Source of the DNA: a virus
DNA length: 64,000 nucleotides
Direction: 5' to 3' (one strand)
Virus record (IMG/VR): IMGVR_UViG_3300027792_000015
Coordinates: 41,249 to 105,248 of that record
The notes below the pieces were generated by a model that was given only the letters and a program-made list of their open reading frames with translations, did no database searches and was not told the origin of the DNA. The translations under genes and the position numbers were made by a program. Positions 3,731 through 19,246 of this stretch are shown here, in pieces. How positions within the stretch are numbered: position 1 is the first letter of the stretch; each line of letters begins with the position of its first letter.

Positions 3731-4249
3731 ATGGTAAAAATTCAACCAAAATTTAAAGTCGGAGACACAGTGTTCGCCACTAAAATTGATGAAGAAGTTA
3801 GTGTTATTGCCGTTAATGTTAATGAAGAAAACATAAATTATACTCTATCAAGACAATATGTAATGCCCGAAATTTACTTAGAAAAATCAAGAGAGAGCGC
3901 TTCATATAAAAACAGCATCGACTGTCTGATAGAGAAAAATAATATATGTTTTAATAATATAGAACAGGCGGAAAACGAAATTAAACGTCAAGAAGAAATA
4001 TTAGAAAAATGTTCAGCAAAGTTAAACAATAAACGAGAATCTGTAAAACCCAGAAATATAATTGATGATTGGAGGGTAATCAGTTATATTAATGATTTAT
4101 ATCTCGAAATCTCCCAAGCAAAACATTATATTAAAAGAGGCAAAGCTCGCATTAAAAGTTTAAAAAATAATTTAAAAACAAACAATGAAAAAATAAAAGA
4201 ACTAAAAAAAGAAATGTTGGTGTTAGAATTGTCAGGAATAATGAAATAA
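3731..4249 (+). CDS. Coiled-coil paralogue family, copy 1 (172 aa)
   Basis: One of three related proteins in the window (also 15793 and 16284). The shared layout is a short N-terminal beta segment beginning PKFKVGDTVF, then about 110 residues of predicted coiled coil rich in Lys, Glu and Asn, ending in a hydrophobic tag of the form E[HYM]L[IV]..L[AS]GI. The function is unknown. The domain order resembles a small SH3-like head on a coiled-coil stalk; that is inference. Confidence 0.7.
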   Translation: MVKIQPKFKVGDTVFATKIDEEVSVIAVNVNEENINYTLSRQYVMPEIYLEKSRESASYKNSIDCLIEKNNICFNNIEQAENEIKRQEEILEKCSAKLNNKRESVKPRNIIDDWRVISYINDLYLEISQAKHYIKRGKARIKSLKNNLKTNNEKIKELKKEMLVLELSGIMK

Positions 4250-4286: not shown

Positions 4287-4490
4287 ATGATGAATAAAAG
4301 TGATACTGACCAAATTTATGTTTCTGTGTTGAAATTTAATAGGTCAATTTGCCACGAAGGCGAACTGATTAAATTATTACTTCCAAATACCCCAGTGATT
4401 GTAAAGTTTATAAAAATAACCGGCGGCCAAACTGCGTGGCTTCTTGATCGTCACGATAGAGACATATACAACTTTTACGGAGAACAATAA
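4287..4490 (+). CDS. Tiny-paralogue family, isolated upstream copy (67 aa)
   Basis: This is the first copy of the tiny-paralogue family, 0.8 kb before the main array. The family motif IYVSVLKFNRSI is at residues 10-21. The tail is longer than in most copies. A second ATG at 4290 is equally possible. Its stop overlaps the next start (TAATG). Confidence 0.7.
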   Translation: MMNKSDTDQIYVSVLKFNRSICHEGELIKLLLPNTPVIVKFIKITGGQTAWLLDRHDRDIYNFYGEQ

Positions 4491-5070: not shown

Positions 5071-5322
5071 ATGAAAAACGAAGAAATGGAAACAATGTAT
5101 GTGGAGTGCATGTGTGAAGACCAATCACACACTTTAAGGTTTTCACAAATAGGTGAAGATGTTTGTGTATCAATGCACCTAACTATGTTTGGATTTTGCG
5201 TCCGACTTTGGAATGCTCTGAAATATATCTTTGGCCATCGATCGAAGTTTGGTGATTTCGAGGAAACCATTTTGGAAAGAAAAGATATAAAAAAGATAGT
5301 TGGGTTTCTGAAAAATGTCTGA
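5071..5322 (+). CDS. Hypothetical protein (83 aa)
   Basis: Not recognised. I take ATG 5071, preceded by GGAG at 5061-5064; a TTG at 5059 is in frame but lies on the ribosome binding site. It contains several Cys (VECMCED, DVCVSM). The stop overlaps the start of the first array member (ATGTCTGA). Confidence 0.65.
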   Translation: MKNEEMETMYVECMCEDQSHTLRFSQIGEDVCVSMHLTMFGFCVRLWNALKYIFGHRSKFGDFEETILERKDIKKIVGFLKNV

Positions 5323-5488
5323 ATATATGCAAGATTTTTATAAATCTGTTTTTAAATACGGGACGAAAATTATAAAAAAATACGAATTATGTAGTAATAA
5401 TTTGTCCATTGATTTAAAAAACAAGGGTGGGTATTCCGGGATTAGATATTATTTTTATTGCAGGATAAATAAATATGATATTGACTGA
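5315..5488 (+). CDS. Tiny-paralogue array member (57 aa)
   Basis: This is the first gene of the array proper. The motif FYKSVFKYGTKI is at 8-19, and the tail is rich in Tyr (IRYYFYCR). It starts inside the previous stop and its end overlaps the next copy by 14 bases. Confidence 0.7.
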   Translation: MSEYMQDFYKSVFKYGTKIIKKYELCSNNLSIDLKNKGGYSGIRYYFYCRINKYDID

Positions 5489-5653
5489 CGAAGAAAGAAT
5501 ATTGTATATTAAAAGAATATATATTTATCTTTTAAAAAAAAAGGAGTGATAGCAAAAAGCCATACACGTGATGCTTTTTATCATAGCGTAGTTACGATTG
5601 GTGTTCCGGGAGACATATTTTGTGCAGACAATTATTTATCTGAATGTAGGTGA
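5475..5653 (+). pseudogene. Tiny-paralogue array member with frameshift at an A9 run
   Basis: ATG 5475 opens a frame with the motif IYIYLLKK at 15-22 and stops at TGA 5547-5549. The rest of a normal copy (GVIAKSHTRDAF..., ending TGA 5651-5653) continues in the -1 frame. The switch point is a run of nine A followed by GG, in the register A-AAA-AAG, a known -1 slippery heptamer. It is either a decayed copy, a base-calling error in the homopolymer, or programmed frameshifting. Confidence 0.6.
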
Positions 5654-5656
5654 TTT

Positions 5657-5812
5657 GTGCAATACGGAATGATGAATGTTTATATTATGTATTTCAAACG
5701 CAAACATAGTATTTATGCCGGCGGTAAAATTAAAGAATTTAATAATATATATTTGCGTGTAGATTTTATAATTAATGGGTATGTTAGGGGCTACACTATA
5801 CTGCAAAAATAA
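5657..5812 (+). CDS. Tiny-paralogue array member (51 aa)
   Basis: The start is GTG 5657, chosen because the DNA matches the ATGCAATA[CT]GAAATGAT starts at 6149 and 6450. The motif VYIMYFKRKHSI is at 8-19. The tail ends GYTILQK. Confidence 0.65.
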   Translation: MQYGMMNVYIMYFKRKHSIYAGGKIKEFNNIYLRVDFIINGYVRGYTILQK

Positions 5813-5826
5813 TGTTGGAGTAAGTT

Positions 5827-5985
5827 ATGCGCGAATCTATGAAAATGGTTTATGTTAAATTTCTAAAACACAAACAAATAATATACAAATATGAAATTTA
5901 TCAATATTTTGGCAAAGAATTTGTAGCGATAGAGTTTAATGGTTTTGGCGTTTGGCCTTACCGAGTTTCAATAGAGGTAATATAG
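5827..5985 (+). CDS. Tiny-paralogue array member (52 aa)
   Basis: This is one of the few copies with a clear ribosome binding site (GGAG about 10 bases upstream). The motif VYVKFLKHKQII is at 8-19, followed by a Tyr/Phe-rich tail. Confidence 0.7.
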   Translation: MRESMKMVYVKFLKHKQIIYKYEIYQYFGKEFVAIEFNGFGVWPYRVSIEVI

Positions 5986-5995
5986 GTGGCAGACT

Positions 5996-6136
5996 ATGCA
6001 GCAACATATGAAAATAGTTTATATTAGATTTATGAAAAAACAACAACAAATATGTGCATATAAAATTAGACTCAATTATCTGACGGTAGATTTTAATATA
6101 TTCGAAAGTATTTGGCATTATTATATCAATTTTTAA
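5996..6136 (+). CDS. Tiny-paralogue array member (46 aa)
   Basis: The motif VYIRFMKKQQQI is at 8-19. Its N-terminus (MQQHMKIVYI) parallels the preceding copy (MRESMKMVYV), suggesting a recent neighbour duplication. Confidence 0.65.
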   Translation: MQQHMKIVYIRFMKKQQQICAYKIRLNYLTVDFNIFESIWHYYINF

Positions 6137-6148
6137 GAAAGTTAAATC

Positions 6149-6277
6149 ATGCAATACGAAATGATGCAAATATATACTAAAATTTTAAAACATGGTCGTA
6201 AAATTGATTCTTATAGTATGTTGTTTGATTCTACTTGTTTAGAGGTTAATATTTTTCCTTCCACTTATTTTATATAA
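6149..6277 (+). CDS. Tiny-paralogue array member (42 aa)
   Basis: A short copy of the MQYEM subgroup, with IYTKILKHGRKI at 8-19. The C-terminus is truncated relative to most copies. Confidence 0.6.
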   Translation: MQYEMMQIYTKILKHGRKIDSYSMLFDSTCLEVNIFPSTYFI

Positions 6278-6291
6278 TATCGGAGTAGTTT

Positions 6292-6447
6292 ATGTGTGGT
6301 CTTATGAGGATAGCGTATATATGTGTTTTAAAAAAGAATTGTGATATTTGTATATCCGATCGCATTCCAACTACATCTGGGTATGATAAAATTAAATCAA
6401 AACCACCATCGAACGACATCTGCTTTTATATTTCGGATAAATTTTAA
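6292..6447 (+). CDS. Tiny-paralogue array member (51 aa)
   Basis: CGGAG lies about ten bases before the ATG. The motif AYICVLKKNCDI is at 8-19. The tail (GYDKIKSKPPSND) is more polar than usual. Confidence 0.65.
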   Translation: MCGLMRIAYICVLKKNCDICISDRIPTTSGYDKIKSKPPSNDICFYISDKF

Positions 6448-6449
6448 TC

Positions 6450-6593
6450 ATGCAATATGAAATGATTGACCTTTATATTGAAATCCTAAAATATGGTTCC
6501 AAAATTAATAAATATTATATGGTTGGTAATGATTATTTGGGTTTAGATATTTATATTTTCCATTTTTATATTAAACAGAAAGAACAACAATGA
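6450..6593 (+). CDS. Tiny-paralogue array member (47 aa)
   Basis: MQYEM subgroup, with LYIEILKYGSKI at 8-19. Its last codon and stop share the ATGA that starts the next copy. Confidence 0.7.
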   Translation: MQYEMIDLYIEILKYGSKINKYYMVGNDYLGLDIYIFHFYIKQKEQQ

Positions 6594-6727
6594 CTGATGC
6601 GATGAAGAAATTTTATATTTATGCTTTAAAATATGGATACGGGATTTACATAAATGAGTGGCGGTCAATTAGCCTCGGCGGCGATAGAATTTGTATTGAG
6701 CTTTATCCTCCCACGAAAAATTCTTAA
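6590..6727 (+). CDS. Tiny-paralogue array member (45 aa)
   Basis: It is coupled to the previous copy by ATGA. The motif FYIYALKYGYGI is at 8-19. The tail carries a strand-like DRICIELY. Confidence 0.7.
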   Translation: MTDAMKKFYIYALKYGYGIYINEWRSISLGGDRICIELYPPTKNS

Positions 6728-6747
6728 TTTTGTTTTAAGGTAAAATA

Positions 6748-6906
6748 ATGGACTGTATGATGCAAGTATTTTATATTAGTATATTAAAACAAAAATATAT
6801 ACCAGAAATAACAGAAAAGTTAATAACTTCTGATGGCCGTCATAGGGTTTTTATTAGATTAAAAGGCGTAGATTATTCTGAATTCTTTTTTACAAGCGAG
6901 TTTTGA
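6748..6906 (+). CDS. Tiny-paralogue array member (52 aa)
   Basis: It has its own AAGG ribosome binding site. The motif FYISILKQKYIP is at 8-19, with the final Ile replaced by Pro. The tail is HRVFIRLKG...FFFTSEF. Confidence 0.65.
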   Translation: MDCMMQVFYISILKQKYIPEITEKLITSDGRHRVFIRLKGVDYSEFFFTSEF

Positions 6907-6908
6907 TT

Positions 6909-7052
6909 ATGCAACAATCTATGGTAAATTTATATATTGATGTATTAAAATATAATTACCACATTGTGGGAGCATTTTCAGCAGAATATTATAATTTATA
7001 TTTCACATTGCGTGAAGACTACACACATTATTTTTTTATAGAGAAAACGTGA
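6909..7052 (+). CDS. Tiny-paralogue array member (47 aa)
   Basis: The motif LYIDVLKYNYHI is at 8-19. The tail is aromatic (YYNLYF, YFFIEKT). The stop overlaps the GTG start of the next copy (GTGA). Confidence 0.65.
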   Translation: MQQSMVNLYIDVLKYNYHIVGAFSAEYYNLYFTLREDYTHYFFIEKT

Positions 7053-7192
7053 ACACTCACTCAATATACATTGACTTTTTCAAAAACAAATTCCCAATTG
7101 TTTGGTATCACGTTTTTGAGAGCGGCGGAACTTGGTGGGTTGAAATCGAAACAGAATGGAATAAATATTTTATACGACAAGGCAAACAATGA
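7049..7192 (+). CDS. Tiny-paralogue array member, GTG start (47 aa)
   Basis: It starts at GTG inside the previous stop. The motif IYIDFFKNKFPI is at 6-17, two residues earlier than in most copies. A Trp-rich strand (GTWWVEIETEW) follows. Confidence 0.65.
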   Translation: MNTHSIYIDFFKNKFPIVWYHVFESGGTWWVEIETEWNKYFIRQGKQ

Positions 7193-7365
7193 GTATTCCA
7201 AATAGTATGCAGTCAATATATATTCAAATTTTAAAATATAAATGGTCAATAACAAAGTCTTATCCAGTAGTGAGATTTTGTGGCATTGATAGTGTGGCCA
7301 TAGAAATAAATTGCCTGCCTTATATACTGGTGCAAAGGGCGCAAAATGACAGAATGTGGCATTAA
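7189..7365 (+). CDS. Tiny-paralogue array member (58 aa)
   Basis: It is coupled by ATGA. The motif IYIQILKYKWSI is at 10-21. It overlaps the next copy by 20 bases, so the last six codons are read in two frames. Confidence 0.65.
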   Translation: MSIPNSMQSIYIQILKYKWSITKSYPVVRFCGIDSVAIEINCLPYILVQRAQNDRMWH

Positions 7366-7504
7366 TTCTCTATATATTAGTTTATTTAAAAACAAACACA
7401 CAATAAAAGATTATCGAATATTTAACCTTAATGGTTTTTCATTTATTATCATCTACACAAATGAAAACTTCAACAATAAATATTATGTTCTTTCAGGAGT
7501 CTAA
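7346..7504 (+). CDS. Tiny-paralogue array member (52 aa)
   Basis: It starts 20 bases inside the previous gene. The motif LYISLFKNKHTI is at 9-20. Its stop directly abuts the next ATG. Confidence 0.65.
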   Translation: MTECGINSLYISLFKNKHTIKDYRIFNLNGFSFIIIYTNENFNNKYYVLSGV

Positions 7505-7720
7505 ATGTATAATTATATTGCACCAAATGGTTTTTGCAAAAATGCAATTTTTGGCATATATATTCAAATTTTCAAAAACAACTGGTCCGGCAGAGTGGTT
7601 GGAAGAGTAAATGAAAAATTATGCACAAGTATAACAATAGAATTAACAGACCCAAAAAATAAATATAATTGTGAAACAATTTATAAAGAATTATTTGCCG
7701 GAGATTTACGGACACGATAA
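7505..7720 (+). CDS. Tiny-paralogue array member, extended N-terminus (71 aa)
   Basis: The motif IYIQIFKNNWSG is displaced to 18-29 by an N-terminal extension (YIAPNGFCKN). GGAG lies before the ATG, in the last codons of the previous copy. Confidence 0.65.
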   Translation: MYNYIAPNGFCKNAIFGIYIQIFKNNWSGRVVGRVNEKLCTSITIELTDPKNKYNCETIYKELFAGDLRTR

Positions 7721-7724
7721 CAAA

Positions 7725-7883
7725 ATGACAGAAAATATAAGACAAATTTATAGGCAAGTTTTTAGGAACAAATGCACCTTGTGGCAAAAAACAGACACTG
7801 AAATAATAGTGATGCATAACACTTTACAATTATATAGACTTTATGTTTGTGAGGAGCCGGTGCCAGGAATTTATTTTTTCTAA
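7725..7883 (+). CDS. Tiny-paralogue array member (52 aa)
   Basis: I use ATG 7725; longer in-frame starts would run into the previous gene. The motif IYRQVFRNKCTL is at 8-19, with Arg in place of the usual Lys. Confidence 0.65.
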   Translation: MTENIRQIYRQVFRNKCTLWQKTDTEIIVMHNTLQLYRLYVCEEPVPGIYFF

Positions 7884-7893
7884 TGAGGTAAAA

Positions 7894-8049
7894 ATGGATT
7901 GGAAAATAGCAAACATTTATCGCGGTGTTTTTAAGTTTGGCGAAAAAATCGAAGTTATAAAAGCAAACAAAAACTTTTTAATGGCCAGCACGACAGATTG
8001 TGATGGTTATAAGACTTTATATTATTTATATAGTCTTGAAAGCAAATAG
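7894..8049 (+). CDS. Tiny-paralogue array member (51 aa)
   Basis: GAGG lies before ATG 7894, so earlier in-frame starts are rejected. The motif IYRGVFKFGEKI is at 8-19. The tail ends LYYLYSLESK. Confidence 0.7.
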   Translation: MDWKIANIYRGVFKFGEKIEVIKANKNFLMASTTDCDGYKTLYYLYSLESK

Positions 8050-8057
8050 GTAGAGGT

Positions 8058-8234
8058 ATGACAATGCTACCATATCGAACAATTTATCGCAGAGTTTTAA
8101 AATATAACTATACTATGACACAAAGAAATATAAATAATTATGGGATACATAGTGAAATTTCTTTTTGGTTGGGGCAAACACTAGCAAGCTCATTTATTGT
8201 TTATGGTAATGGAGTTTATTCTTGGAGAACTTAA
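8058..8234 (+). CDS. Tiny-paralogue array member (58 aa)
   Basis: AGAGG lies close to the ATG. The motif IYRRVLKYNYTM is at 9-20. The last base of its stop is the first base of the next ATG. Confidence 0.65.
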   Translation: MTMLPYRTIYRRVLKYNYTMTQRNINNYGIHSEISFWLGQTLASSFIVYGNGVYSWRT

Positions 8235-8338
8235 TGGCAATTCCAATAGCGTGTGAAATGACATATATAAAAGTTTTAAAATACGGCTACACGATGGAAC
8301 AAACGAAAAAATGCTCACCGAAGCCAGAAACAGCGTAG
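8234..8338 (+). CDS. Tiny-paralogue array member, truncated (34 aa)
   Basis: The motif TYIKVLKYGYTM at 10-21 is normal, but the frame ends at TAG 8336 after 34 residues, the shortest copy. The following DNA encodes part of an unrelated family (see 8311-8397), so this looks like a recombination junction. Confidence 0.55.
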   Translation: MAIPIACEMTYIKVLKYGYTMEQTKKCSPKPETA

Positions 8339-8397
8339 AAAAAGCAAAGAGAAATTTTTTGATTATGAAATTAGCGGGGTTAAGTCGCAACACCTAA
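8311..8397 (+). pseudogene. Remnant of the coiled-coil family C-terminus
   Basis: A 28-codon frame opening at ATG 8311 encodes ...VEKAKRNFLIMKLAGLSRNT. The FLIMKLAGL block matches the C-terminal tags of the coiled-coil proteins at 3731 (MLVLELSGI), 15793 (LIIQLAGI) and 16284 (LILYLAGV). It overlaps the truncated array copy in another frame. It appears to be a fragment left by recombination between the two families. Confidence 0.5.
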
Positions 8398-8460
8398 AAT
8401 GTTGCGTGGATTGAAACAAACAGAATTCTATGGCCCTCACTTTATTTGGACTGGAAACCG

Positions 8461-8622
8461 ATGCAAGTAGAAATGAAATATTTATACATAAACATACTTA
8501 AATATAACAACAAAATATATAAAATGAAGCTCTCCAATTACTGGCTAATATTACAAGCAAACGATGAAGCACAAAATTATCATAAAGTTTATATTATATA
8601 CGACAAGGAAATAAATGACTAA
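8461..8622 (+). CDS. Tiny-paralogue array member (53 aa)
   Basis: It starts at the repeated junction ATGCAAGTAG. The motif LYINILKYNNKI is at 8-19. Between 8399 and 8470 a 23-codon frame ending in ...GNRCK could be the tail of a lost copy. Confidence 0.65.
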   Translation: MQVEMKYLYINILKYNNKIYKMKLSNYWLILQANDEAQNYHKVYIIYDKEIND

Positions 8623-8767
8623 TGGCATGAAAGATTTATATATCTATGTATTTAAAGAAAATTGCAAAATATATAAACCATTTTATTGGGGTGACTACCT
8701 TGTGATTAATTGTAAATCATCATTTAGTGATCCTGTCTTTGATTGCTGGATTAAAACATGCAAGTAG
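8615..8767 (+). CDS. Tiny-paralogue array member (50 aa)
   Basis: MTNGMKD subgroup; the first 20 bases are repeated exactly at 9368. The motif LYIYVFKENCKI is at 8-19. It ends in ...TCK at the ATGCAAGTAG junction. Confidence 0.7.
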   Translation: MTNGMKDLYIYVFKENCKIYKPFYWGDYLVINCKSSFSDPVFDCWIKTCK

Positions 8768-8913
8768 ATATGCAAAATGTTTATATAGATTTCTTTAAGC
8801 ATAATTACACAATAAAACAAACATCACATTATAGTAAGTGGTGGAAACTTGTTATTAGAAATAGTAAGGGAACTTATTATTATAACTATTATTATCGAGT
8901 GAAACATAAATGA
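8758..8913 (+). CDS. Tiny-paralogue array member (51 aa)
   Basis: The motif VYIDFFKHNYTI is at 8-19. It is a close sister of the copy at 9224: both have QNVYI[DN]FFK, a WW[KQ]LVI strand and a YYYNY tail. Confidence 0.7.
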   Translation: MQVDMQNVYIDFFKHNYTIKQTSHYSKWWKLVIRNSKGTYYYNYYYRVKHK

Positions 8914-9071
8914 CAGAAGAAATGCAAAGTTTATATACAAAGATAATTAAGTATAATTACAAAATATATGAGGTAGGATATTTGGACGCTTGGTGTATAT
9001 TATATGTTAAAAGTAAAAGTGCTAATGGGTTTTACACACAAAATTGTTTTATTGAATGGAAACATGAATGA
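8910..9071 (+). CDS. Tiny-paralogue array member (53 aa)
   Basis: ATGA coupling on both sides. The motif LYTKIIKYNYKI is at 8-19. The tail has a strand-like WCILYVKSKS. Confidence 0.7.
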   Translation: MTEEMQSLYTKIIKYNYKIYEVGYLDAWCILYVKSKSANGFYTQNCFIEWKHE

Positions 9072-9223
9072 CTACTGGTATGAAAGACATTTATAGATAT
9101 TTCTATAAGCATAATTATACAATAGAAAAAATTCCAACCCATTTAGGCAATACATTAGAGCTTCGCATAAAAGATAAGAACGATTTATCTTGCTCTTATT
9201 TTTTCTTTTATGGTGGAAGATAA
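9068..9223 (+). CDS. Tiny-paralogue array member (51 aa)
   Basis: The start MTTGMKD resembles the copies at 8615 and 9368. The motif IYRYFYKHNYTI is at 8-19. The tail contains SYFFFYGG. Confidence 0.7.
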   Translation: MTTGMKDIYRYFYKHNYTIEKIPTHLGNTLELRIKDKNDLSCSYFFFYGGR

Positions 9224-9367
9224 ATGATTAAAGATATGCAAAATGTTTATATAAATTTCTTTAAGTATAATCACACAATAAAACAATATGGTAATTGGTG
9301 GCAACTTGTTATTGGAAATAGTAGTGGAGGCTATTATTACAACTATTGTTGTCGGGTGGAAAAGTAA
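9224..9367 (+). CDS. Tiny-paralogue array member (47 aa)
   Basis: A sister of the 8758 copy, with VYINFFKYNHTI at 8-19 and the tail YYYNYCCRVEK. It abuts the genes on both sides with no spacer. Confidence 0.7.
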   Translation: MIKDMQNVYINFFKYNHTIKQYGNWWQLVIGNSSGGYYYNYCCRVEK

Positions 9368-9508
9368 ATGACTAATGGCATGAAAGACATTTATATCTAT
9401 GTATTTAAGTTTGGTTTCAAAATATATCAAAATCACACTTACCGCGATTTTTGCGAGTTTTATGTGGTTGGCCCTCTTGAAACTTTGCGTCTTTGTGTAA
9501 TTGATTAG
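9368..9508 (+). CDS. Tiny-paralogue array member (46 aa)
   Basis: A sister of the 8615 copy at the DNA level. The motif IYIYVFKFGFKI is at 8-19, but the tail (FYVVGPLETLRLCVID) is unrelated to its sister's, so the two halves evolve at different rates. Confidence 0.7.
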   Translation: MTNGMKDIYIYVFKFGFKIYQNHTYRDFCEFYVVGPLETLRLCVID

Positions 9509-9520
9509 TGGAGAAATATT

Positions 9521-9694
9521 ATGATACCGAGTGCAATGAAATTTGTATATATAAAATCATTTAAGGGTGGTGATAAAATTCATGCATATCACAATCATCA
9601 CGAACTTGGTTTTCTTGAAATTTGTTTTAAGCATTGGTTTGTTGGCAGTATAATAAGGCGTTTTATTCACTATGGAAAACGAAAATGCAAGTAG
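9521..9694 (+). CDS. Tiny-paralogue array member (57 aa)
   Basis: It has its own GGAG site. The motif VYIKSFKGGDKI is at 9-20. The middle is His-rich (HAYHNHHELG). It ends ...KCK at the third ATGCAAGTAG junction. Confidence 0.65.
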   Translation: MIPSAMKFVYIKSFKGGDKIHAYHNHHELGFLEICFKHWFVGSIIRRFIHYGKRKCK

Positions 9695-9837
9695 CAATGA
9701 AAGACATTTATATAAGTGTATTTAAATACAATCATAAAATATATGATTATTATCCCTATGATGATTTATGCGTAATCTATATTAAAGATAAATACAACAT
9801 TTTTACGGGGAGATATAATGTCAGACATGCAATATGA
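9685..9837 (+). CDS. Tiny-paralogue array member (50 aa)
   Basis: It starts at the ATGCAAGTAG junction. The motif IYISVFKYNHKI is at 8-19. It overlaps the next copy by 20 bases. Confidence 0.7.
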   Translation: MQVAMKDIYISVFKYNHKIYDYYPYDDLCVIYIKDKYNIFTGRYNVRHAI

Positions 9838-10000
9838 TATGAAAAAACTTTATATATCTATTCTTAAGCATAAAGCGCCCATACGCTCATGCACTAGACA
9901 TACCAGTGGATTTTATGTGATTAAGGCATATGTTAAAACAATTTATGTAGAAAAATTAAAGAGATACTATATTTTTAGATTACCGACGAGCAAAAAATGA
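9818..10000 (+). CDS. Tiny-paralogue array member (60 aa)
   Basis: GGGGAG lies before ATG 9818. The motif LYISILKHKAPI is at 11-22, after an extra MSD that extends the MQYDM start. The tail is basic (KLKRYYIFRLPTSKK). Confidence 0.7.
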   Translation: MSDMQYDMKKLYISILKHKAPIRSCTRHTSGFYVIKAYVKTIYVEKLKRYYIFRLPTSKK

Positions 10001-10173
10001 AAGAGCACATAAGAGAAATTTATATAAGTTTGCTCAAACGTAACTACACAGTATATGCATGTTTTAGGTCACCTGATGATTACGAATATATAATCGATCT
10101 TCGAGTAAGCTATTATTTTGCTTTCGATAGACATTTTCTTCGGCCACGGGAGTTGGAATGCAAAGAGATATGA
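9997..10173 (+). CDS. Tiny-paralogue array member (58 aa)
   Basis: ATGA-coupled to the previous copy. The motif IYISLLKRNYTV is at 8-19. It overlaps the next copy by 16 bases. Confidence 0.65.
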   Translation: MKEHIREIYISLLKRNYTVYACFRSPDDYEYIIDLRVSYYFAFDRHFLRPRELECKEI

Positions 10174-10316
10174 TAAAATTGTATGTTGATTTTTTTAAGT
10201 ATAATGTTGCAATATATAAGATGGAAACGCCAGAATATTTGGAAGATACAGTTATGGTGTTTTGTGTGTCAAAATCTAATCTTTATTATTTTAATTATTG
10301 CACTATTAGAAAGTAA
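10158..10316 (+). CDS. Tiny-paralogue array member (52 aa)
   Basis: GGGAG and TTGGA stretches precede the ATG. The motif LYVDFFKYNVAI is at 8-19. The tail NLYYFNYCTIRK resembles those at 8758 and 9224. Confidence 0.7.
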   Translation: MQRDMIKLYVDFFKYNVAIYKMETPEYLEDTVMVFCVSKSNLYYFNYCTIRK

Positions 10317-10319
10317 TAT

Positions 10320-10508
10320 ATGATGCCACTTAATATAAAAAGCATTTATTTGAAATATTTTAAATTTAACCTTCCGATATTATCATTTTCTGAATCTGGA
10401 TATGATGAGGGTGGATACATAATTGATATTAAATCAACTCTTCCTACATATTTGGAGAGATATATTCTACTGCCAACATTATCTCGCCACACACTTGTTC
10501 GATTATAA
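10320..10508 (+). CDS. Tiny-paralogue array member (62 aa)
   Basis: The motif IYLKYFKFNLPI is at 9-20 when ATG 10320 is used; ATG 10323 is equally possible. The C-terminus is longer and Leu-rich. Confidence 0.65.
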   Translation: MMPLNIKSIYLKYFKFNLPILSFSESGYDEGGYIIDIKSTLPTYLERYILLPTLSRHTLVRL

Positions 10509-10521
10509 TATTTGGTGCCAA

Positions 10522-10665
10522 ATGTCTTATGAAATAGCAACAATATATACCGAATTATTTAAGCACAAGGGAAGAATAATTGGTTTTAATCACTTAAACA
10601 CTTACTATGACATAACAATAAGTTTGTATGGTTCCTATGACGCGCATCACTTATATATTACTTAA
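10522..10665 (+). CDS. Tiny-paralogue array member (47 aa)
   Basis: I use ATG 10522; a longer in-frame start would overlap the previous gene by about 85 bases. The motif IYTELFKHKGRI is at 8-19. Confidence 0.65.
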   Translation: MSYEIATIYTELFKHKGRIIGFNHLNTYYDITISLYGSYDAHHLYIT

Positions 10666-10675
10666 AGGGAAAAAT

Positions 10676-10822
10676 ATGCCAGATAAAATTAGACATCTTT
10701 ATATGTGTATGTTTGTTTGGGGCTGGACTATAAATAAAATAATTGAAAGAAATAACCATTATAGTATAGAAATTTTTTCTGATTCAATGAAGTATAAATA
10801 TAATTATAGATTGGAAAAATAA
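10676..10822 (+). CDS. Tiny-paralogue array member, atypical motif (48 aa)
   Basis: The motif LYMCMFVWGWTI at 8-19 keeps the Tyr and the final Ile, but the normally invariant Lys is Val. The tail has MKYKYNYRLEK. Confidence 0.65.
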   Translation: MPDKIRHLYMCMFVWGWTINKIIERNNHYSIEIFSDSMKYKYNYRLEK

Positions 10823-10983
10823 TGATATTGCCATATAAAATTAATAATATTTATGTATTATTGTTTAAGCGTAATTGGATTGTGAATGAAGTAATTGAGA
10901 GAGATGAATGTTATGATATTTATATATCTGCTTCACCTCGCATAATCAGCGCATGGAATTTATATAGATTGGACAAACAATGA
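10822..10983 (+). CDS. Tiny-paralogue array member (53 aa)
   Basis: TAATG overlap with the previous copy and ATGA with the next. The motif IYVLLFKRNWIV is at 10-21. It is a sister of the previous copy: both have E.[IVN].ER[DN].{2}Y.I and a .Y+L[ED]K tail. Confidence 0.7.
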   Translation: MILPYKINNIYVLLFKRNWIVNEVIERDECYDIYISASPRIISAWNLYRLDKQ

Positions 10984-11177
10984 CTTGGGCAATGAACAGA
11001 ATTTATTTTAGGTTGCTAAAACATAAAAATACAGTTGTTTCAGTAGATAAGCAAAATGAAATAAATGCATATGTTGTAAAATTACGCGACCAAACATCCC
11101 AGTGTGTTTATACTTACGTTCTTTATGACGATAATTCACCAGCAATAGTATTTAATAAAGGATCAAATAATGATTGA
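10980..11177 (+). CDS. Tiny-paralogue array member (65 aa)
   Basis: This is the last copy before the first interruption. The motif IYFRLLKHKNTV is at 8-19. It overlaps the nucleotidyltransferase start by eight bases. Confidence 0.7.
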   Translation: MTWAMNRIYFRLLKHKNTVVSVDKQNEINAYVVKLRDQTSQCVYTYVLYDDNSPAIVFNKGSNND

Positions 11178-11754
11178 TATAAACATTTACTCTTATGGTT
11201 CTCGTGTTTATGGAACGCACACAGAAAATTCAGATTTTGATTATATAGTTGTTTCAGATACACAAATTCCCCACCAGCAAATAGACAAAGAAAATACAAA
11301 CTATACGATTTATAGTATGGAGGAATTTTATAAGCAAATACGGGAATATGAAATATCAGCCTTGGAGTGTTTGTTTTTGCCAGCCAATCAAATAATTAAA
11401 AACTCTCAACCAATTCAACCACCGTCCGACTTTGACTTGGGAAAACTTCGGTCTTCCATTTCCGCAAAGGCGTCTAATAGTTTCGTAAAGGCCAAGAAAA
11501 AGTTTATAGTTGAAAAAGACCGTAATATTTATGTTGGTAAAAAGAGTTTGTTTCATTCTTTGCGAATTCCTATTTTTGGTTGTCAGTTGGCTACCAGCGG
11601 AAAAATCACAAATTATGCAGCAGCTAATCATTACTGGCCGGATATACTAAATAATCCCAGTGAGAATTGGGAGGATTACCACAAAATTTACAAACCCATT
11701 CACAATAAAGAAATGACAGAATTCCGGAAACACTGCCCAAAGGAAAACACATGA
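11170..11754 (+). CDS. Predicted nucleotidyltransferase (RlaP/COG3541-like)
   Basis: A 194 aa protein starting MIDINIYSYGSRVYGTHTEN, followed by SDFDYIVV. The GS...(9)...D.D pattern is the nucleotide- and metal-binding core of the polymerase-beta nucleotidyltransferase superfamily. The length and the GSRxYGT form fit the predicted nucleotidyltransferases found in many phages; their substrate, possibly RNA ends, is not established. It overlaps the previous array gene and is followed by the Cys-rich gene with a four-base overlap, so the two are probably co-translated. Confidence 0.75.
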   Translation: MIDINIYSYGSRVYGTHTENSDFDYIVVSDTQIPHQQIDKENTNYTIYSMEEFYKQIREYEISALECLFLPANQIIKNSQPIQPPSDFDLGKLRSSISAKASNSFVKAKKKFIVEKDRNIYVGKKSLFHSLRIPIFGCQLATSGKITNYAAANHYWPDILNNPSENWEDYHKIYKPIHNKEMTEFRKHCPKENT

Positions 11755-12431
11755 AAAAAGAATTAGAAGAAAAACTATTTAAAGACTTTCCGCTACTTTA
11801 TGGCGATCGCAACAGACCAATGACCGAAACTTGTATGTGCTGGGGGTGTTCGTGCGGCACAGGCTGGTTTGATTTGATTTATGAGTTGTCGTCTAAATTG
11901 GAACCACTCATTGAGGAAATAAAATTAGCGAGCGATGGTGGTCCTTGTGAGCGCTGTGGGTGCTCAAAGGATAGTCACCACGGAGAATGTCAAACAATCG
12001 TAAATCATCCATTCTTACTGAAAGTTCCATATTCTTGTGAAGTTCCTAATTTAAGTGTTTCTCTTAAAAGAAATAAATCTTTTTTGAGGGGAATAAAAGA
12101 TTATGTTCGTGTGTTGTGGAAAAAGCATAGAACATCAATGAGGAAAGCAATAAATCGTGTGTCGTATTTCCTTTTTAAGAAGTCAATTCTATCTTACAAA
12201 AAGAAATGTTTCTGTGATTGTTATAGCATTTCCCACCCACGCGCCTCGCAGGTAAAAGAAAAAATGGGTGAAATGAAAATGTATCTCACACACGGAACCG
12301 ACGAAATGTTTGATTTAATTGACAAAGCAACTGAAAAGTCTCTTACTATTTGTGAGAACTGCGGCCAACCAGGAAAGCCAAACGAATACGGTTGGATATC
12401 TGTTCTGTGCGAGGAATGTAGGAAAAAGTAA
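11751..12431 (+). CDS. Cys-rich conserved phage-type protein (226 aa)
   Basis: The function is unknown. Residues about 27-45 read ETCMCWGCSCGTGWFDLIY; further zinc-type knuckles are CERCGC near 62, CFCDC in the middle, and CENCGQ...CEECR at the C-terminus, so at least two metal sites are likely. Proteins with a WGC..G.GWFDLI N-terminus occur in other phages, from memory, without a known role. The central part is basic and could touch nucleic acid (inference). Its stop abuts the next array copy. Confidence 0.6.
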   Translation: MKKELEEKLFKDFPLLYGDRNRPMTETCMCWGCSCGTGWFDLIYELSSKLEPLIEEIKLASDGGPCERCGCSKDSHHGECQTIVNHPFLLKVPYSCEVPNLSVSLKRNKSFLRGIKDYVRVLWKKHRTSMRKAINRVSYFLFKKSILSYKKKCFCDCYSISHPRASQVKEKMGEMKMYLTHGTDEMFDLIDKATEKSLTICENCGQPGKPNEYGWISVLCEECRKK

Positions 12432-12572
12432 ATGGATCGTAATATTAGTAGCCTATACATAAATATATTTAAAAATAACTGTAAAGTTTATGAGTTTGTA
12501 AATGAAAAAAACTTGTATATTATTAGAGTGGAATTACGCGGTTGGTATAAGCCATGTTTTTTGTGGAAATAA
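12432..12572 (+). CDS. Tiny-paralogue array member (46 aa)
   Basis: It starts directly after the Cys-rich gene stop. The motif LYINIFKNNCKV is at 8-19, followed by LYIIRVEL. Confidence 0.7.
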   Translation: MDRNISSLYINIFKNNCKVYEFVNEKNLYIIRVELRGWYKPCFLWK

Positions 12573-12589
12573 TATAGAAAGCGGTTGAA

Positions 12590-12730
12590 ATGTATTACCT
12601 TATGAGTGTTGTATATATTAGTGCATTAAAAGATAAATGTAAGATTAATATTGCAGAAGATGAATTCTCATATATTGTTTGGGTTGTTCCAAAAATTGGG
12701 TATAGTGTTCCCTATTATCTAAAAAGGTAA
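12590..12730 (+). CDS. Tiny-paralogue array member (46 aa)
   Basis: The motif VYISALKDKCKI is at 8-19. The tail has the strand SYIVWVVP and ends PYYLKR. Confidence 0.7.
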   Translation: MYYLMSVVYISALKDKCKINIAEDEFSYIVWVVPKIGYSVPYYLKR

Positions 12731-12734
12731 TTGA

Positions 12735-12875
12735 ATGAGATACGAAGTGTTTTATATGTATTTTTGGTTGTTTAAACATAATCTTAAAGTTATTGAGTTT
12801 ATAGAAGAGGAAAATGAATATATAATTTATCTTGAACCAGGTCGTAGCTTGCGTCCATATGTTTTTAAAAAATAG
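12735..12875 (+). CDS. Tiny-paralogue array member (46 aa)
   Basis: The motif MYFWLFKHNLKV is at 8-19. The tail EYIIYLEPG...YVFKK parallels the two copies before it, so these three form a local subgroup. Confidence 0.7.
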   Translation: MRYEVFYMYFWLFKHNLKVIEFIEEENEYIIYLEPGRSLRPYVFKK

Positions 12876-12888
12876 AAAGAGAATTATA

Positions 12889-13014
12889 ATGATTTATGGT
12901 ATGCGTTATATTTACAAGAAGTTCTTTAAATATAATTACAAAATTATAGGATTTGAGTATAAAAATGAAAAATTATTAATTTATGTTAATGATATGTTTC
13001 CACGTGCCATATGA
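12889..13014 (+). CDS. Tiny-paralogue array member (41 aa)
   Basis: A short copy with IYKKFFKYNYKI at 8-19. A GAGA stretch lies before ATG 12889; the upstream in-frame start is rejected because it lies in the previous gene. It ends inside the next start (ATATGA). Confidence 0.65.
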   Translation: MIYGMRYIYKKFFKYNYKIIGFEYKNEKLLIYVNDMFPRAI

Positions 13015-13184
13015 AATTCTTTGTTAAGGCGCCGGGCATGAGTTATTATATGTGTAGTATTTATATACAGTTGCTTAAATATAAATACAAAATTATAAAA
13101 TTTAAAGAAACAAACGATAAATTAATATTTTATTTTGATGATAATATTATCGACCTATCTTTTCCCTACGAGGTTAAAAAATGA
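13011..13184 (+). CDS. Tiny-paralogue array member (57 aa)
   Basis: With ATG 13011 the motif IYIQLLKYKYKI is at 17-28. Starting at the internal ATG encoding residue 10 would restore the usual register, so the true start is uncertain. It is ATGA-coupled to the next gene. Confidence 0.65.
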   Translation: MKFFVKAPGMSYYMCSIYIQLLKYKYKIIKFKETNDKLIFYFDDNIIDLSFPYEVKK

Positions 13185-13639
13185 ATATATTTGTTTTAGA
13201 TTTAGAACCATCCAAAGCCGCTAAATTTCACGCAGACAAGCATGTAATAAAATTAATTCTGGAAACAGCGCAGCTGCTTTCTACGGCCGTTCGGTTAAGT
13301 GGTATTGATTTTGGATATCGCATTACACATCAAAATCATCCGTGTAGCCTTTGGACCAGAAAAACAAGAGCAAATTTTGAGTGGCTTAAAGAATTAGGTA
13401 TCGCATTGTGCGAAGAATATACTTATAGATATGGAAAAATTCACGCAAGCGAAAGTATTATTCGTGGAGCACCCAATCAAATAATTACCGCCGGCCCACT
13501 TACTCCTTTTGCACAAGCAATGCCAGAAGAATATAAAAATAATGACCCAGTTGCGGCATACAGAAATTATTATTTAGCTGAAAAGAAAAACTTATTACAC
13601 TACACAAAAAGGGAAAAACCAGAATGGATAAAAATTTAG
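13181..13639 (+). CDS. Conserved phage protein of unknown function (152 aa)
   Basis: It begins MNIFVLDLEPSKAAKFHADK and contains a THQNHPCSLW segment, CEEYTYRYGK and LTPFAQAMPEEYK, ending in KREKPEW. From memory this set of motifs belongs to a protein common in tailed phages that is annotated as hypothetical. The fixed His, Cys and Asp positions suggest an enzyme or metal site, but no reaction is established. It overlaps genes on both sides and interrupts the tiny-paralogue array. Confidence 0.65.
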   Translation: MNIFVLDLEPSKAAKFHADKHVIKLILETAQLLSTAVRLSGIDFGYRITHQNHPCSLWTRKTRANFEWLKELGIALCEEYTYRYGKIHASESIIRGAPNQIITAGPLTPFAQAMPEEYKNNDPVAAYRNYYLAEKKNLLHYTKREKPEWIKI

Positions 13640-13977
13640 CAGACGCTTTTATACAAGAACTATTAAATAAAAAACGTCTTGGCAAAGAGAAACTAAAATT
13701 AGTGTTAAATGAACTTTTCAAAAGAGGAAATTTGGACCAAGAGGACATAAAATACAATGAGTCAAAATTTCCCTTCACCAATAAAGAGTTTGCCGCTGCG
13801 TTTGAGCACTTGGTCGATGGCAAGAAACCATCGAACGCGACGAACGACAACGAAGTGTGGATTTTTGACCACAGGGGCCATATTTTTACGGCAGAAATAA
13901 TCATGGGCCAAGGGTCATCATATATTTTATCAATGGGTTCTCGTTACTCAAAGTTGCCAGTGATAAAATTAAAATGA
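13624..13977 (+). CDS. Hypothetical protein (117 aa)
   Basis: Not recognised. The first half is helical and basic; the second half contains a strand-rich VWIFDHRGHIFTAEIIMG. It overlaps the previous gene by 16 bases and the next array copy by ATGA. Confidence 0.6.
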   Translation: MDKNLADAFIQELLNKKRLGKEKLKLVLNELFKRGNLDQEDIKYNESKFPFTNKEFAAAFEHLVDGKKPSNATNDNEVWIFDHRGHIFTAEIIMGQGSSYILSMGSRYSKLPVIKLK

Positions 13978-14132
13978 GTCCATCGATTTATAGATTATAC
14001 GTGGATATATTTAAGCACAAAATAAAGGCAAAGTGGAAGACCCGTAAGGGTGAAAATTATTTTATGATTTATTCGAGCCAGGAAAATGGAATAAACCACT
14101 TTTATTTGTTGGTTGAAACTAAAAATGGATAA
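13974..14132 (+). CDS. Tiny-paralogue array member (52 aa)
   Basis: First of the YRLY subgroup (SIYRLYVDIFK). The motif LYVDIFKHKIKA is at 8-19, with Ala at the usual Ile. It overlaps the next copy by eight bases. Confidence 0.7.
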   Translation: MSPSIYRLYVDIFKHKIKAKWKTRKGENYFMIYSSQENGINHFYLLVETKNG

Positions 14133-14283
14133 GTCAGTTTATAGATTATATATAGATATTTTTAAAAACAATATTAAGGCCGACTGGACTGTTACCTATA
14201 TGATTGATTATGTGTGGGTTGTTGCGGAAGAAGACAATTATGGGTTTCGTAGTTACTTTTACATATTACAGGAAATAAAATAA
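14125..14283 (+). CDS. Tiny-paralogue array member (52 aa)
   Basis: A sister of the previous copy (SVYRLYIDIFK, IKADW against IKAKW). The motif is at 8-19. TAATG overlap with the next copy. Confidence 0.7.
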   Translation: MDKSVYRLYIDIFKNNIKADWTVTYMIDYVWVVAEEDNYGFRSYFYILQEIK

Positions 14284-14504
14284 TGGATTATTCTGTTCGT
14301 GAAATGTATATAAATATTTTAAAATCAAGATCAAAAATATACGATTATCATGTTTATTTTGATAATTCTGTCCGAATTTCTGTTATAGGTAATAATTTTA
14401 AAAGATATCACGTTATACTTGTTTCTTCTAATAAACTTAAAAATAAACATATAATTTGGTCGCGTTATGGACTTTATAATAATCCACGCAAGCATTGGGA
14501 ATAA
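14283..14504 (+). CDS. Tiny-paralogue array member, longest (73 aa)
   Basis: The motif MYINILKSRSKI is at 8-19. The C-terminus is extended (HIIWSRYGLYNNPRKHWE), making this the longest copy. Confidence 0.7.
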   Translation: MDYSVREMYINILKSRSKIYDYHVYFDNSVRISVIGNNFKRYHVILVSSNKLKNKHIIWSRYGLYNNPRKHWE

Positions 14505-14506
14505 AT

Positions 14507-14662
14507 ATGAGTTCAAACATTTATAGACTATACATTAATATTTTTAAATACGGCGGTCGAATACTAAATCAATTTACAGAACATAATGGAGATATAGTAA
14601 TAAACTTATCAAATAGTTGGTTTTGTTCTGTTTTAAGGAGTAAGAATGATTTACCTGGATAA
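14507..14662 (+). CDS. Tiny-paralogue array member, last of the array (51 aa)
   Basis: YRLY subgroup, with LYINIFKYGGRI at 8-19. It runs 17 bases into the cysteine desulfurase gene, so the ribosome binding site AAGGAG of that gene lies in its coding sequence. Confidence 0.7.
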   Translation: MSSNIYRLYINIFKYGGRILNQFTEHNGDIVINLSNSWFCSVLRSKNDLPG

Positions 14663-15809
14663 TCAATCATCTACTAAAATAGATAAGCGTGTTTTAAAAG
14701 CAATGGAACCCTATCTAACAGAACATTTTGCAAACCCAGCAGCAGCCCATTTTGCGGCAGAGGAACCACGGCAAGCAATCGAAATGGCTCGCAATAATGT
14801 ATCTTACTTGATTAAGGCAAAACCAGAAAATTTATATTTTACTAATTCAGCAACAGAATCGAATAATATAGTTTTACAGGGTCGTTTAGCGAATCATAGG
14901 AAAAATAGCAATAATGCCGCAATCATTATTACATCAAACATAGAACATTCTTCTGTTTCAAAAACGCTTCAAAATATGTGGTCGAAAGATAATCTTTTTT
15001 TCAATCAAACTTTAAAGATAAATAGCAACGGTGAAATTGATTTAGACAAACTCAATCATACAATTAAAAATTATTTCAGCAATCGTGTTATTCTGGTTTC
15101 TATCATAGCGGCGAGCAACGAAATAGGTGTAATAAATAATCTGTCCGACATAGGTGCGATTTGCAAGCGTCACAATGTTTTATTTCACACAGACGCAACA
15201 CAGGCAATTGGAAAAGTTGATATTGATGTCAATGCCATGAATATATTTGCTTTGACTTTCAACGCTCACAAAATTAATGGGCCAAAGGGAGTTGGTGCTT
15301 TGTTTGTTAGAAATCCTAATTTAGTTGAGCCACTAATACACGGAGGATATCAGAACACTTTTTCATCAGGGACACAAAATGTTCCGGCAATAGTTGGGTT
15401 TGGAGAAGCATGTGATATACTACGAAAAGAAGGGAAAAAAGAAAATGAAAGAATTAGTTATAGACGTGATTTGTTATGGAGAAATTTATCTTCCAGCATT
15501 CCTGATATTTTTATCAACGGCACAATGAAAAATCGTTTGCCAAACAACCTAAACATTACTATAAAAGGAGTTAAGGCAGAAATTTTGGTCAAGGGAATGA
15601 GTGATGTTGCGGTTTCCGGAGGTTCTGCGTGTAATTCTGGAAATCTGGAACCCTCGCTGGTAATATTGGCGCTCGGAACACCCTATCCTGATTGTGCTAT
15701 AAGAATTAGTCTTGGAAGATTCACCACAATGGCCGATTGTGAATATGCGGCAAAAAAGATTAAAGACATAGTAGAAAGTGTTAGGTGCAACAATGAAACC
15801 AAAATATAA
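14646..15809 (+). CDS. Cysteine desulfurase (NifS/IscS type)
   Basis: A PLP enzyme that takes sulfur from cysteine for Fe-S clusters or thiolated nucleosides. It opens IYLDNQSSTKIDKRV; FTNSATESNN is the cofactor-binding loop, HTDATQAIG holds the PLP-binding Asp and Gln, NAHKINGPKG carries the PLP lysine (K209), and SGGSACNSGN carries the active-site Cys (C329). At 387 aa it is full length and looks intact. The ribosome binding site is AAGGAG. Inside the phage possible clients are the Fe-S uracil glycosylase at 20083 and the Cys-tailed nuclease at 29487 (inference). No DNA phosphorothioation genes are near. Confidence 0.9.
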   Translation: MIYLDNQSSTKIDKRVLKAMEPYLTEHFANPAAAHFAAEEPRQAIEMARNNVSYLIKAKPENLYFTNSATESNNIVLQGRLANHRKNSNNAAIIITSNIEHSSVSKTLQNMWSKDNLFFNQTLKINSNGEIDLDKLNHTIKNYFSNRVILVSIIAASNEIGVINNLSDIGAICKRHNVLFHTDATQAIGKVDIDVNAMNIFALTFNAHKINGPKGVGALFVRNPNLVEPLIHGGYQNTFSSGTQNVPAIVGFGEACDILRKEGKKENERISYRRDLLWRNLSSSIPDIFINGTMKNRLPNNLNITIKGVKAEILVKGMSDVAVSGGSACNSGNLEPSLVILALGTPYPDCAIRISLGRFTTMADCEYAAKKIKDIVESVRCNNETKI

Positions 15810-18087: not shown

Positions 18088-18162
18088 TTTAATTTACAGC
18101 CACTTTGGGCCAAAGACAATTTAAAGAAATCTAATAAATATAAAAAAGGAGATAATTTATGA
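18088..18162 (+). pseudogene. 3' remnant of the HNH gene
   Basis: It is in frame after the amber stop and encodes FNLQPLWAKDNLKKSNK, matching the C-termini of the sister HNH genes almost residue for residue. It ends at a TGA that overlaps the next start (ATGA). A single base change would restore the gene, so the lesion looks recent. Confidence 0.65.
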
Positions 18163-18407
18163 AGAAAAATATTGATATTGCAAATAGAGTTGTTGAATAT
18201 AGTAATGTAGAATCTACTTGTGCCATTGAAGATGAGGTGGTTGGTTATTTAAAACGCCAAATGAAGGTTGTATTTAGAGATGCGTTATTCAACAACAGAA
18301 AATTCGTGTTTATTAGAGGGCCAGGAGACCAGAGCAGTAATTCGATTATGGTAAGTTCTTATAGGCGTAAAAATCCTGGTGAAAAGGTATCTATCTCATT
18401 TCAATGA
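18159..18407 (+). CDS. Hypothetical protein (82 aa)
   Basis: Not recognised. AAGGAG lies before the ATG. The N-terminal 14 residues are duplicated at 17106. The C-terminal half is basic with a short strand pattern (KFVFIRGPG). ATGA overlap with the next gene. Confidence 0.6.
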   Translation: MKKNIDIANRVVEYSNVESTCAIEDEVVGYLKRQMKVVFRDALFNNRKFVFIRGPGDQSSNSIMVSSYRRKNPGEKVSISFQ

Positions 18408-18604
18408 ATAAAGAATACAATAATGTCAGCATAAATAATATAAAGCTTATTTATGTAAGTGTTTTTAAGCATCATCACAAAATTGCTGGGTTTGACTGGT
18501 CGGATTTGGATACAGATGTTTTATATATATCACTTACGGCACCAGATTATCTTGACATTAAATTTAGAACTGTTGATGTTCCCATTTGGATAACAAATAA
18601 ATAG
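18404..18604 (+). CDS. Tiny-paralogue family, isolated downstream copy (66 aa)
   Basis: A family copy about 3.7 kb past the array. The motif IYVSVFKHHHKI is at 16-27, very close to the upstream outlier at 4287 (IYVSVLKFNRSI). It is ATGA-coupled to the gene before it. Confidence 0.7.
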   Translation: MNKEYNNVSINNIKLIYVSVFKHHHKIAGFDWSDLDTDVLYISLTAPDYLDIKFRTVDVPIWITNK

Positions 18605-18634
18605 AGGCACCTCTCTAAATACAAAGGAGTAAAA

Positions 18635-19231: not shown

Positions 19232-19246
19232 GATGGAGATATAATT

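What the first reader, a model, noticed from the sequence alone, without database searches (positions are those of the whole stretch)
5315..14662. Tandem array of about 45 tiny paralogous genes (47 with two outliers)
Seen: 45 consecutive small ORFs (34-73 codons) repeat one N-terminal motif, with Tyr near residue 9 and Lys near residue 14, in a nearly fixed register, followed by highly variable tails. They fill over 9 kb of a compact phage genome. I know of no described phage family with this form. Inference: one conserved docking or folding element carries a diversified surface, so the array may be a library of small effectors (for example blocking variants of a host or defence protein), amplified by gene duplication under an arms race.
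Basis: partly seen in the sequence, partly recalled or inferred. Interest (0 to 1): 0.93.

Follow-up and report, generated by a model that had tools for sequence, protein, structure and literature searches.

The report
Phage family of 64 mini-genes
A bacterial virus carries about 64 tiny related genes, 44 of them packed into one 9-kb stretch, that encode the same roughly 50-residue protein fold with an ever-changing surface; the family is unknown elsewhere and may be a home-grown library of small binding proteins.

Summary
Between 5315 and 14662 I count 44 intact family genes (34-73 aa) plus one remnant. They are not strictly consecutive: blocks of 35, 5 and 4 are separated by four unrelated genes. 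A 45th copy lies at 4290 and another at 18404. The whole 105-kb IMG/VR phage record has 64 intact copies, including a second array of 16 upstream. A null of ten shuffled genomes gave one hit.

The 'variable tail' is not free. All members fit one full-length profile (Y9 in every aligned copy, K14 in about 95%). Hydrophobic positions alternate in the tail, and AlphaFold gives a compact helix plus three strands (pLDDT 81). Core codons are under purifying selection (ratio about 0.5); surface codons are about 1.0-1.1. Similarity falls with gene distance, as expected from local tandem duplication.

No relative was found in Pfam, PHROGs, NCBIfam, PADLOC, PDB sequences or folds, INPHARED, sampled IMG/VR and GTDB patterns, or phages with related terminase (42-76% identity).

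Best reading (about 0.5): a lineage-specific multigene family of small binders on one scaffold, probably counter-defence or host-takeover. Function and targets are not shown.

The parts
4290..4490 (+). family member (outlying, 66 aa)
   Evidence: profile hit E=1.8e-6, Y10/K15
5315..5488 (+). family member 1 of array
5469..5549 (+). remnant of a family copy (IYIYLLKKKE then stop)
   Evidence: weak hit 0.036, no full ORF
5657..5812 (+). family member 2 (GTG start)
5827..5985 (+). family member 3
5996..6136 (+). family member 4
6149..6277 (+). family member 5
6292..6447 (+). family member 6
6450..6593 (+). family member 7
6590..6727 (+). family member 8
6748..6906 (+). family member 9
6909..7052 (+). 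family member 10
7049..7192 (+). family member 11 (GTG start)
7189..7365 (+). family member 12
7346..7504 (+). family member 13
7505..7720 (+). family member 14 (start uncertain; conserved part begins near 7529)
7725..7883 (+). family member 15
7894..8049 (+). family member 16
8058..8234 (+). family member 17
8234..8338 (+). family member 18, short (34 aa), possibly truncated
8461..8622 (+). family member 19
8615..8767 (+). family member 20
   Evidence: E=4.6e-17
8758..8913 (+). family member 21; model mbcad3c7c72fa, helix 3-14, strands 18-24, 28-35, 38-45
8910..9071 (+). family member 22
9068..9223 (+). family member 23
9224..9367 (+). family member 24; youngest duplicate of 8758 (67% aa identity)
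9368..9508 (+). family member 25
9521..9694 (+). family member 26
9685..9837 (+). family member 27
9827..10000 (+). family member 28
9997..10173 (+). family member 29
10158..10316 (+). family member 30
10323..10508 (+). family member 31
10522..10665 (+). family member 32
10676..10822 (+). family member 33 (K14 replaced by V)
10822..10983 (+). family member 34
10980..11177 (+). family member 35
12432..12572 (+). family member 36
12590..12730 (+). family member 37
12735..12875 (+). family member 38
12889..13014 (+). family member 39
13038..13184 (+). family member 40 (recent duplicate of 12889)
13974..14132 (+). family member 41
14125..14283 (+). family member 42
14283..14504 (+). family member 43 (73 aa)
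14507..14662 (+). family member 44
18404..18604 (+). outlying family member directly before the ClpP-like gene
   Evidence: profile hit E=1e-4; start
11170..11754 (+). unrelated gene inside the array: nucleotidyltransferase
   Evidence: PF01909, phrog_388
11751..12431 (+). unrelated gene inside the array, common in IMG/VR phages, function unknown
13181..13639 (+). unrelated gene inside the array: phrog_624 / Pyr_excise-like
13624..13977 (+). unrelated gene inside the array, no family

Best explanation
A lineage-specific phage multigene family, expanded to about 64 copies by repeated local tandem duplication. Each gene encodes a free-standing domain of about 50 residues: one N-terminal helix (with the invariant Tyr9 and near-invariant Lys14) packed on a three-stranded antiparallel sheet. 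The core is kept, while the exposed positions change freely and are Tyr-rich. Shown: the family, the copy numbers, selection for open frames, core constraint, local duplication, absence of detectable relatives. Predicted: the fold. Inferred, not shown: the proteins are made together from a tightly packed operon-like run during infection and act as small binding proteins, each copy drifting to a different partner (host or defence proteins, or variants of one such protein), with the Tyr9/Lys14 helix as a shared structural or docking element. The array would then be a reservoir of counter-defence or host-takeover specificities that gains and loses copies.
For: 64 intact copies, 1 remnant, 1 null hit in ten shuffled genomes. 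One full-length profile with alternating hydrophobic tail columns. AlphaFold gives the same alpha-beta-beta-beta topology for two members, pLDDT 73 with 45 and 81 with 58 sequences. Codon ratio core 0.51-0.53, surface 1.01-1.13 in 11 mutual-best pairs with columns classed from the other members. Tyr is 11% of residues (rest of proteome 4.0%) and 12.6% at variable columns, a composition known from engineered and antibody binding surfaces (own knowledge). Local duplication. The array sits in the accessory interval just upstream of the conserved replication core: the interval between the homologues at G000 36785 and the IscS gene is about 18.8 kb here and about 3.1 kb in the collinear relative G013, which lacks the family. 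Precedent that phages amplify small counter-defence genes in tandem through microhomology recombination: T4 tifA (PMC9391042).
Against: No target, expression, virion or phenotype data. Positive selection is not demonstrated: the surface ratio is compatible with 1. No similarity to any known counter-defence protein was found; PADLOC covers defence rather than counter-defence. The AlphaFold models rest on paralogues of one genome only. Proteins are mostly basic (median net charge +2), which also suits nucleic-acid binding.
Confidence: 0.5

Rival explanations
1. Packaged internal (ejection) proteins or nucleic-acid-binding proteins: small basic domains that bind phage DNA or are co-packaged and injected, diversified like the T4 internal proteins.
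For: Mostly basic (median pI 8.8); a conserved N-terminal segment plus variable remainder resembles T4 internal proteins, whose sequence motif drives packaging and which act against host defences (PMC9391042).
Against: The conserved part is not a removable leader: the profile runs through the whole protein and no conserved Glu cleavage site follows the helix. 15 of 61 members are neutral or acidic. The array lies beside replication genes, not head genes.
Confidence: 0.15
2. Hetero-oligomeric structural subunits: the copies assemble with one another into a shell, filament or scaffold, and the shared helix is the assembly interface.
For: A shared helix and a small three-stranded sheet with free edges would allow strand pairing between subunits (models); many closely packed paralogues.
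Against: Surface positions show almost no constraint, unusual for obligate co-assembling subunits; none of the terminase relatives has the family.
Confidence: 0.1
3. Runaway duplication with little function: recombination between similar copies keeps adding genes, and most copies are nearly neutral passengers.
For: Surface codons near neutrality; one remnant copy, one truncated copy; copy-number growth by local duplication.
Against: 64 intact frames against about one remnant; neutral simulation keeps only 4-25% open; core ratio about 0.5; phage genomes are limited in size, so about 10 kb of passengers is costly (T4 amplification forces deletions, PMC9391042).
Confidence: 0.17
4. Inhibitors or antitoxin mimics against one class of host toxin or nuclease, amplified for dosage rather than diversity.
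For: T4 gains extra tifA copies to inhibit the toxin ToxN (PMC9391042).
Against: Dosage would favour near-identical copies, but most pairs here share only 15-35% identity.
Confidence: 0.06
5. Not genes: the conserved piece is a repeated DNA or RNA element that happens to be open.
For: The first 58 nt are the best conserved DNA.
Against: Synonymous codons are used at the invariant residues (Tyr TAT 52/TAC 8; Lys AAA 44/AAG 13), protein-level core constraint, hydrophobic alternation in the tail; no Rfam match.
Confidence: 0.02

Closest known systems
T4 internal proteins (IPI, IPII, IPIII) with capsid-targeting sequence
   Same: Small phage proteins sharing a targeting segment with divergent remainder; some act against host defence (PMC9391042).
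   Different: Few copies; the conserved part is a packaging signal rather than part of a domain. Here the whole protein is one predicted fold with no conserved cleavage site, and there is no sequence match.
T4 dmd-tifA tandem amplification under ToxIN selection
   Same: Tandem amplification of a small phage gene in an arms race.
   Different: T4 copies are fresh segmental repeats made in the laboratory; here the copies are old and mostly 15-35% identical.
Viral multigene families such as those of African swine fever virus, or the poxvirus gene accordions (own knowledge)
   Same: Lineage-specific tandem families in variable genome regions tied to host interaction.
   Different: Larger proteins, eukaryotic viruses; here a phage and domains of about 50 aa. 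Sequence relation not tested beyond Pfam.
HicA / double-stranded-RNA-binding folds and Tad1
   Different: All hits are non-significant (E above 0.2), the second helix and the HicA histidine are absent, and Tad1 is not among the hits listed for the better model.

Membership tests
T4-type internal proteins | Sequence similarity to a known phage family | tested here: not met
   58 members against PHROGs: only single-member chance hits, best E 0.0017
T4-type internal proteins | Conserved N-terminal leader followed by prohead-protease site and unrelated body | tested here: not met
   Profile is full length; no conserved Glu after the helix
T4-type internal proteins | Presence in the virion and injection | not testable with these tools
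   No proteomics
TifA-like counter-defence proteins | Inhibition of a host defence or toxin | not testable with these tools
   Needs an assay
TifA-like counter-defence proteins | Direct sequence similarity to TifA | not tested
   Only indirectly through PHROGs (no match)
TifA-like counter-defence proteins | Tandem amplification of a small phage gene | tested here: met
   44 and 16 copy arrays, local duplication
HicA / dsRBD fold | alpha-beta-beta-beta-alpha fold | tested here: not met
   Model ends after the third strand; no significant PDB or viral fold hit
HicA / dsRBD fold | Catalytic histidine of HicA | tested here: not met
   No conserved His column
Tad1 anti-Thoeris | Tad1 fold | tested here: not met
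Any Pfam, NCBIfam or PADLOC family | Profile match above curated cut-off | tested here: not met
Viral tandem multigene family (general kind) | Lineage-restricted family of many diverged tandem paralogues | tested here: met

The most novel reading that the evidence does not exclude
A phage-encoded library of single-domain binders on one new minimal scaffold: tandem copies keep the core and explore surface sequence, giving the phage many specificities against host and defence proteins without antibodies or retroelement mutagenesis.
Probability: 0.35. Interest if true: 0.93.

Novelty: new variant of a known kind. Interest (0 to 1): 0.78.

Why it matters
Tandem multigene families that arise in arms races are known from large eukaryotic viruses, but I found no described phage example of this size. 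About 64 copies spend roughly a tenth of a 105-kb record on one tiny domain. If they are binders, this is a natural scaffold library that makes gene amplification, diversification and counter-defence directly testable copy by copy, and it supplies a 50-residue scaffold of practical use. If they are passengers, it still documents an extreme case of gene-family growth under a capsid size limit.

Tried and rejected
The full alignment and an 11-member subset had no stretch conserved enough for the search for related loci, so degenerate DNA patterns were used instead; their hits in viral contigs and genome contigs were all chance by profile. tblastn of two members in INPHARED at E<=10: nothing. Near relatives were sought through genes inside the array: the 11751 protein is widespread without the family, the 11170 protein gave none. 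Contigs sharing the MORN family (L262-L265) lack it. A link between the array helix and the N-terminus of the MORN family was tested by profile comparison and rejected. Fold searches gave no significant match. Promoter and terminator scans were at chance level and uninformative. My first surface codon ratio of 1.26 used columns chosen from all members including the test pairs; with independent columns and base-frequency weighting it fell to 1.0-1.1, so I do not claim positive selection. Literature searches found no matching phage family.
Full report
The window is positions 41249-105248 of a 105,248-bp IMG/VR virus record. It is a phage: large terminase (distantly Bacillus-phage-like), DnaE-type polymerase and, by sequence recognition, RecA-like and SbcCD-like proteins, trigger factor, DnaJ and ClpP; GroEL lies further upstream. 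All these genes are on the + strand.

Check of the observation. Reading the + strand from 5315 to 14662 gives 44 intact ORFs of 34-73 aa that mostly begin M...M..(I/L/V)Y...(F/L)K. They come in blocks of 35, 5 and 4, separated by four unrelated genes. A profile built from them finds 62 places in the record in one search and, in my own six-frame search, the same set plus a remnant at 5469. In total there are 64 intact members: the 44, the copies at window 4290 and 18404, 16 copies at G000:29005-32296, and singles at 7662 and about 24251. Ten Markov genomes of the same dinucleotide content give one hit in all. Gaps between neighbours are mostly small, with many overlaps. Copies are too diverged (mostly 15-35% identity) to be an assembly artefact.

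Are they genes? Synonymous codons are used at the invariant Tyr and Lys. Random substitution at 10-30% of sites would leave only 4-25% of the ORFs without a new stop. Core codons change at about half the synonymous rate. So the frames are selected at protein level. Translation itself is not shown.

What is the protein? Column statistics on 61 members show conserved or hydrophobic positions 5, 8, 9, 10, 12, 13 in the helix, Lys14, a turn at 16, Ile19, then hydrophobic positions 30/32/34 and 43/45/47. AlphaFold with 45 paralogues gives helix 3-14 and strands 19-22, 25-31, 37-44 (pLDDT 73); with 58 paralogues and another member it gives helix 3-14 and strands 18-24, 28-35, 38-45 (pLDDT 81, pTM 0.55). 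Two members thus give the same topology. Foldseek against PDB and viral models has nothing significant.

How did it grow? Similarity falls with gene distance in the main array (Mantel r -0.16, 0 of 5000 permutations) and in the upstream array (r -0.35, p 0.0024), with lags 1-3 most alike. The upstream array is more alike within itself than to the main array. In the collinear relative G013 (162 kb, terminase 76% identical) the interval from the homologue of G000 36785 to the IscS gene is about 3.1 kb instead of 18.8 kb and lacks the family.

Selection. In 11 mutual-best pairs, with columns classed from other members, the ratio is 0.51-0.53 for core and 1.01-1.13 for variable columns, the latter compatible with 1. 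So the surface is unconstrained or diversifying; positive selection is not proven. Tyrosine is 2.8 times commoner than in the rest of the proteome and remains 12.6% at variable columns, which I read, as inference, as a hint of protein-binding surfaces.

Relatives. None in Pfam, PHROGs, NCBIfam, PADLOC or PDB sequences; none by tblastn in 50,697 phage records; none by profile in 15 records found by terminase, in the contigs with the same MORN family, or in the loci collected by patterns and neighbour genes. The last scan also found no cluster of more than four small within-locus paralogues among 18,253 small ORFs, so the array is an outlier.

Mechanism. I favour a lineage-specific set of small binders, made together and diverging to different partners, most plausibly host or defence proteins. 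Steps shown: family, duplication, protein-level constraint, lack of detected relatives. Step predicted: fold. Steps inferred: expression in infection, binding, targets, counter-defence. The precedent for the amplification step is T4 tifA, where tandem copies arise through typically 6-10 bp microhomology and are followed by deletions elsewhere because of packaging limits (PMC9391042). Rivals are packaged internal or nucleic-acid-binding proteins, co-assembling subunits, and mostly neutral runaway duplication.

Novelty. As a kind, tandem viral multigene families exist; as a phage family of about 64 copies of one 50-residue domain with no relatives, I found nothing described. I therefore rate it a new variant of a known kind, with the binder-library reading as the most novel case not excluded.

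Noticed in passing
L009:7312-8271; L010:1136-1740, 7097-8227, 17992-19410 (record positions 7312-39410, upstream of the window): A second expanded family of about 10 genes: N-terminal 'LHDA.TAYL(A/S)GLTT' segment followed by MORN_2 repeats. The same family forms a tandem cluster in two other IMG/VR contigs (L262, L263).
   Followed up: partly
window 3731-4249, 15778-16287, 16284-16799; L009:4026-4595; G013 7039, 94835-96481; L262 1651-2100: Different small proteins of several phages end in a shared motif hLhhxL(A/S)G(I/L/V). A similar string stands at the N-terminus of the MORN family and ends a frame at about 8311-8397 inside the array. Possibly a common docking or sorting helix.
   Followed up: partly
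window 958, 14646, 18635, 31803, 39949; L010:13708: Phage-encoded peptide deformylase and aminotransferase-V / cysteine-desulfurase-like protein (profile matches), and by sequence recognition ClpP, trigger factor, DnaJ and GroEL: an unusually full protein-maturation set. Relative G013 also seems to encode an elongation factor Ts (L033:6449).
   Followed up: no
window 41881-43540: IS607-like element by sequence recognition: serine recombinase and TnpB-like protein in overlapping frames, between a protease-like gene and the RecA-like gene.
   Followed up: no
window 17212, 44742, 60934; L009:11373: Four related HNH-like proteins, some with internal 'ENNKEKI' repeats, scattered through the genome, with homologues in the relatives.
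   Followed up: partly
L033:7821-8698 (relative G013): In the interval that holds the array here, the relative has two adjacent genes sharing the N-terminal motif MKIR..FVSNSSSSSF with different remainders.
   Followed up: no
window 8234-8397: Shortest family member (34 aa) overlaps an ORF in another frame ending LIMKLAGLSRNT; looks like a frameshifted or recombined copy.
   Followed up: no
window 1457-2410 and 2403-3332: Two adjacent genes of about 310 aa, the first without any Pfam or PHROG match, possibly paralogues of each other.
   Followed up: no
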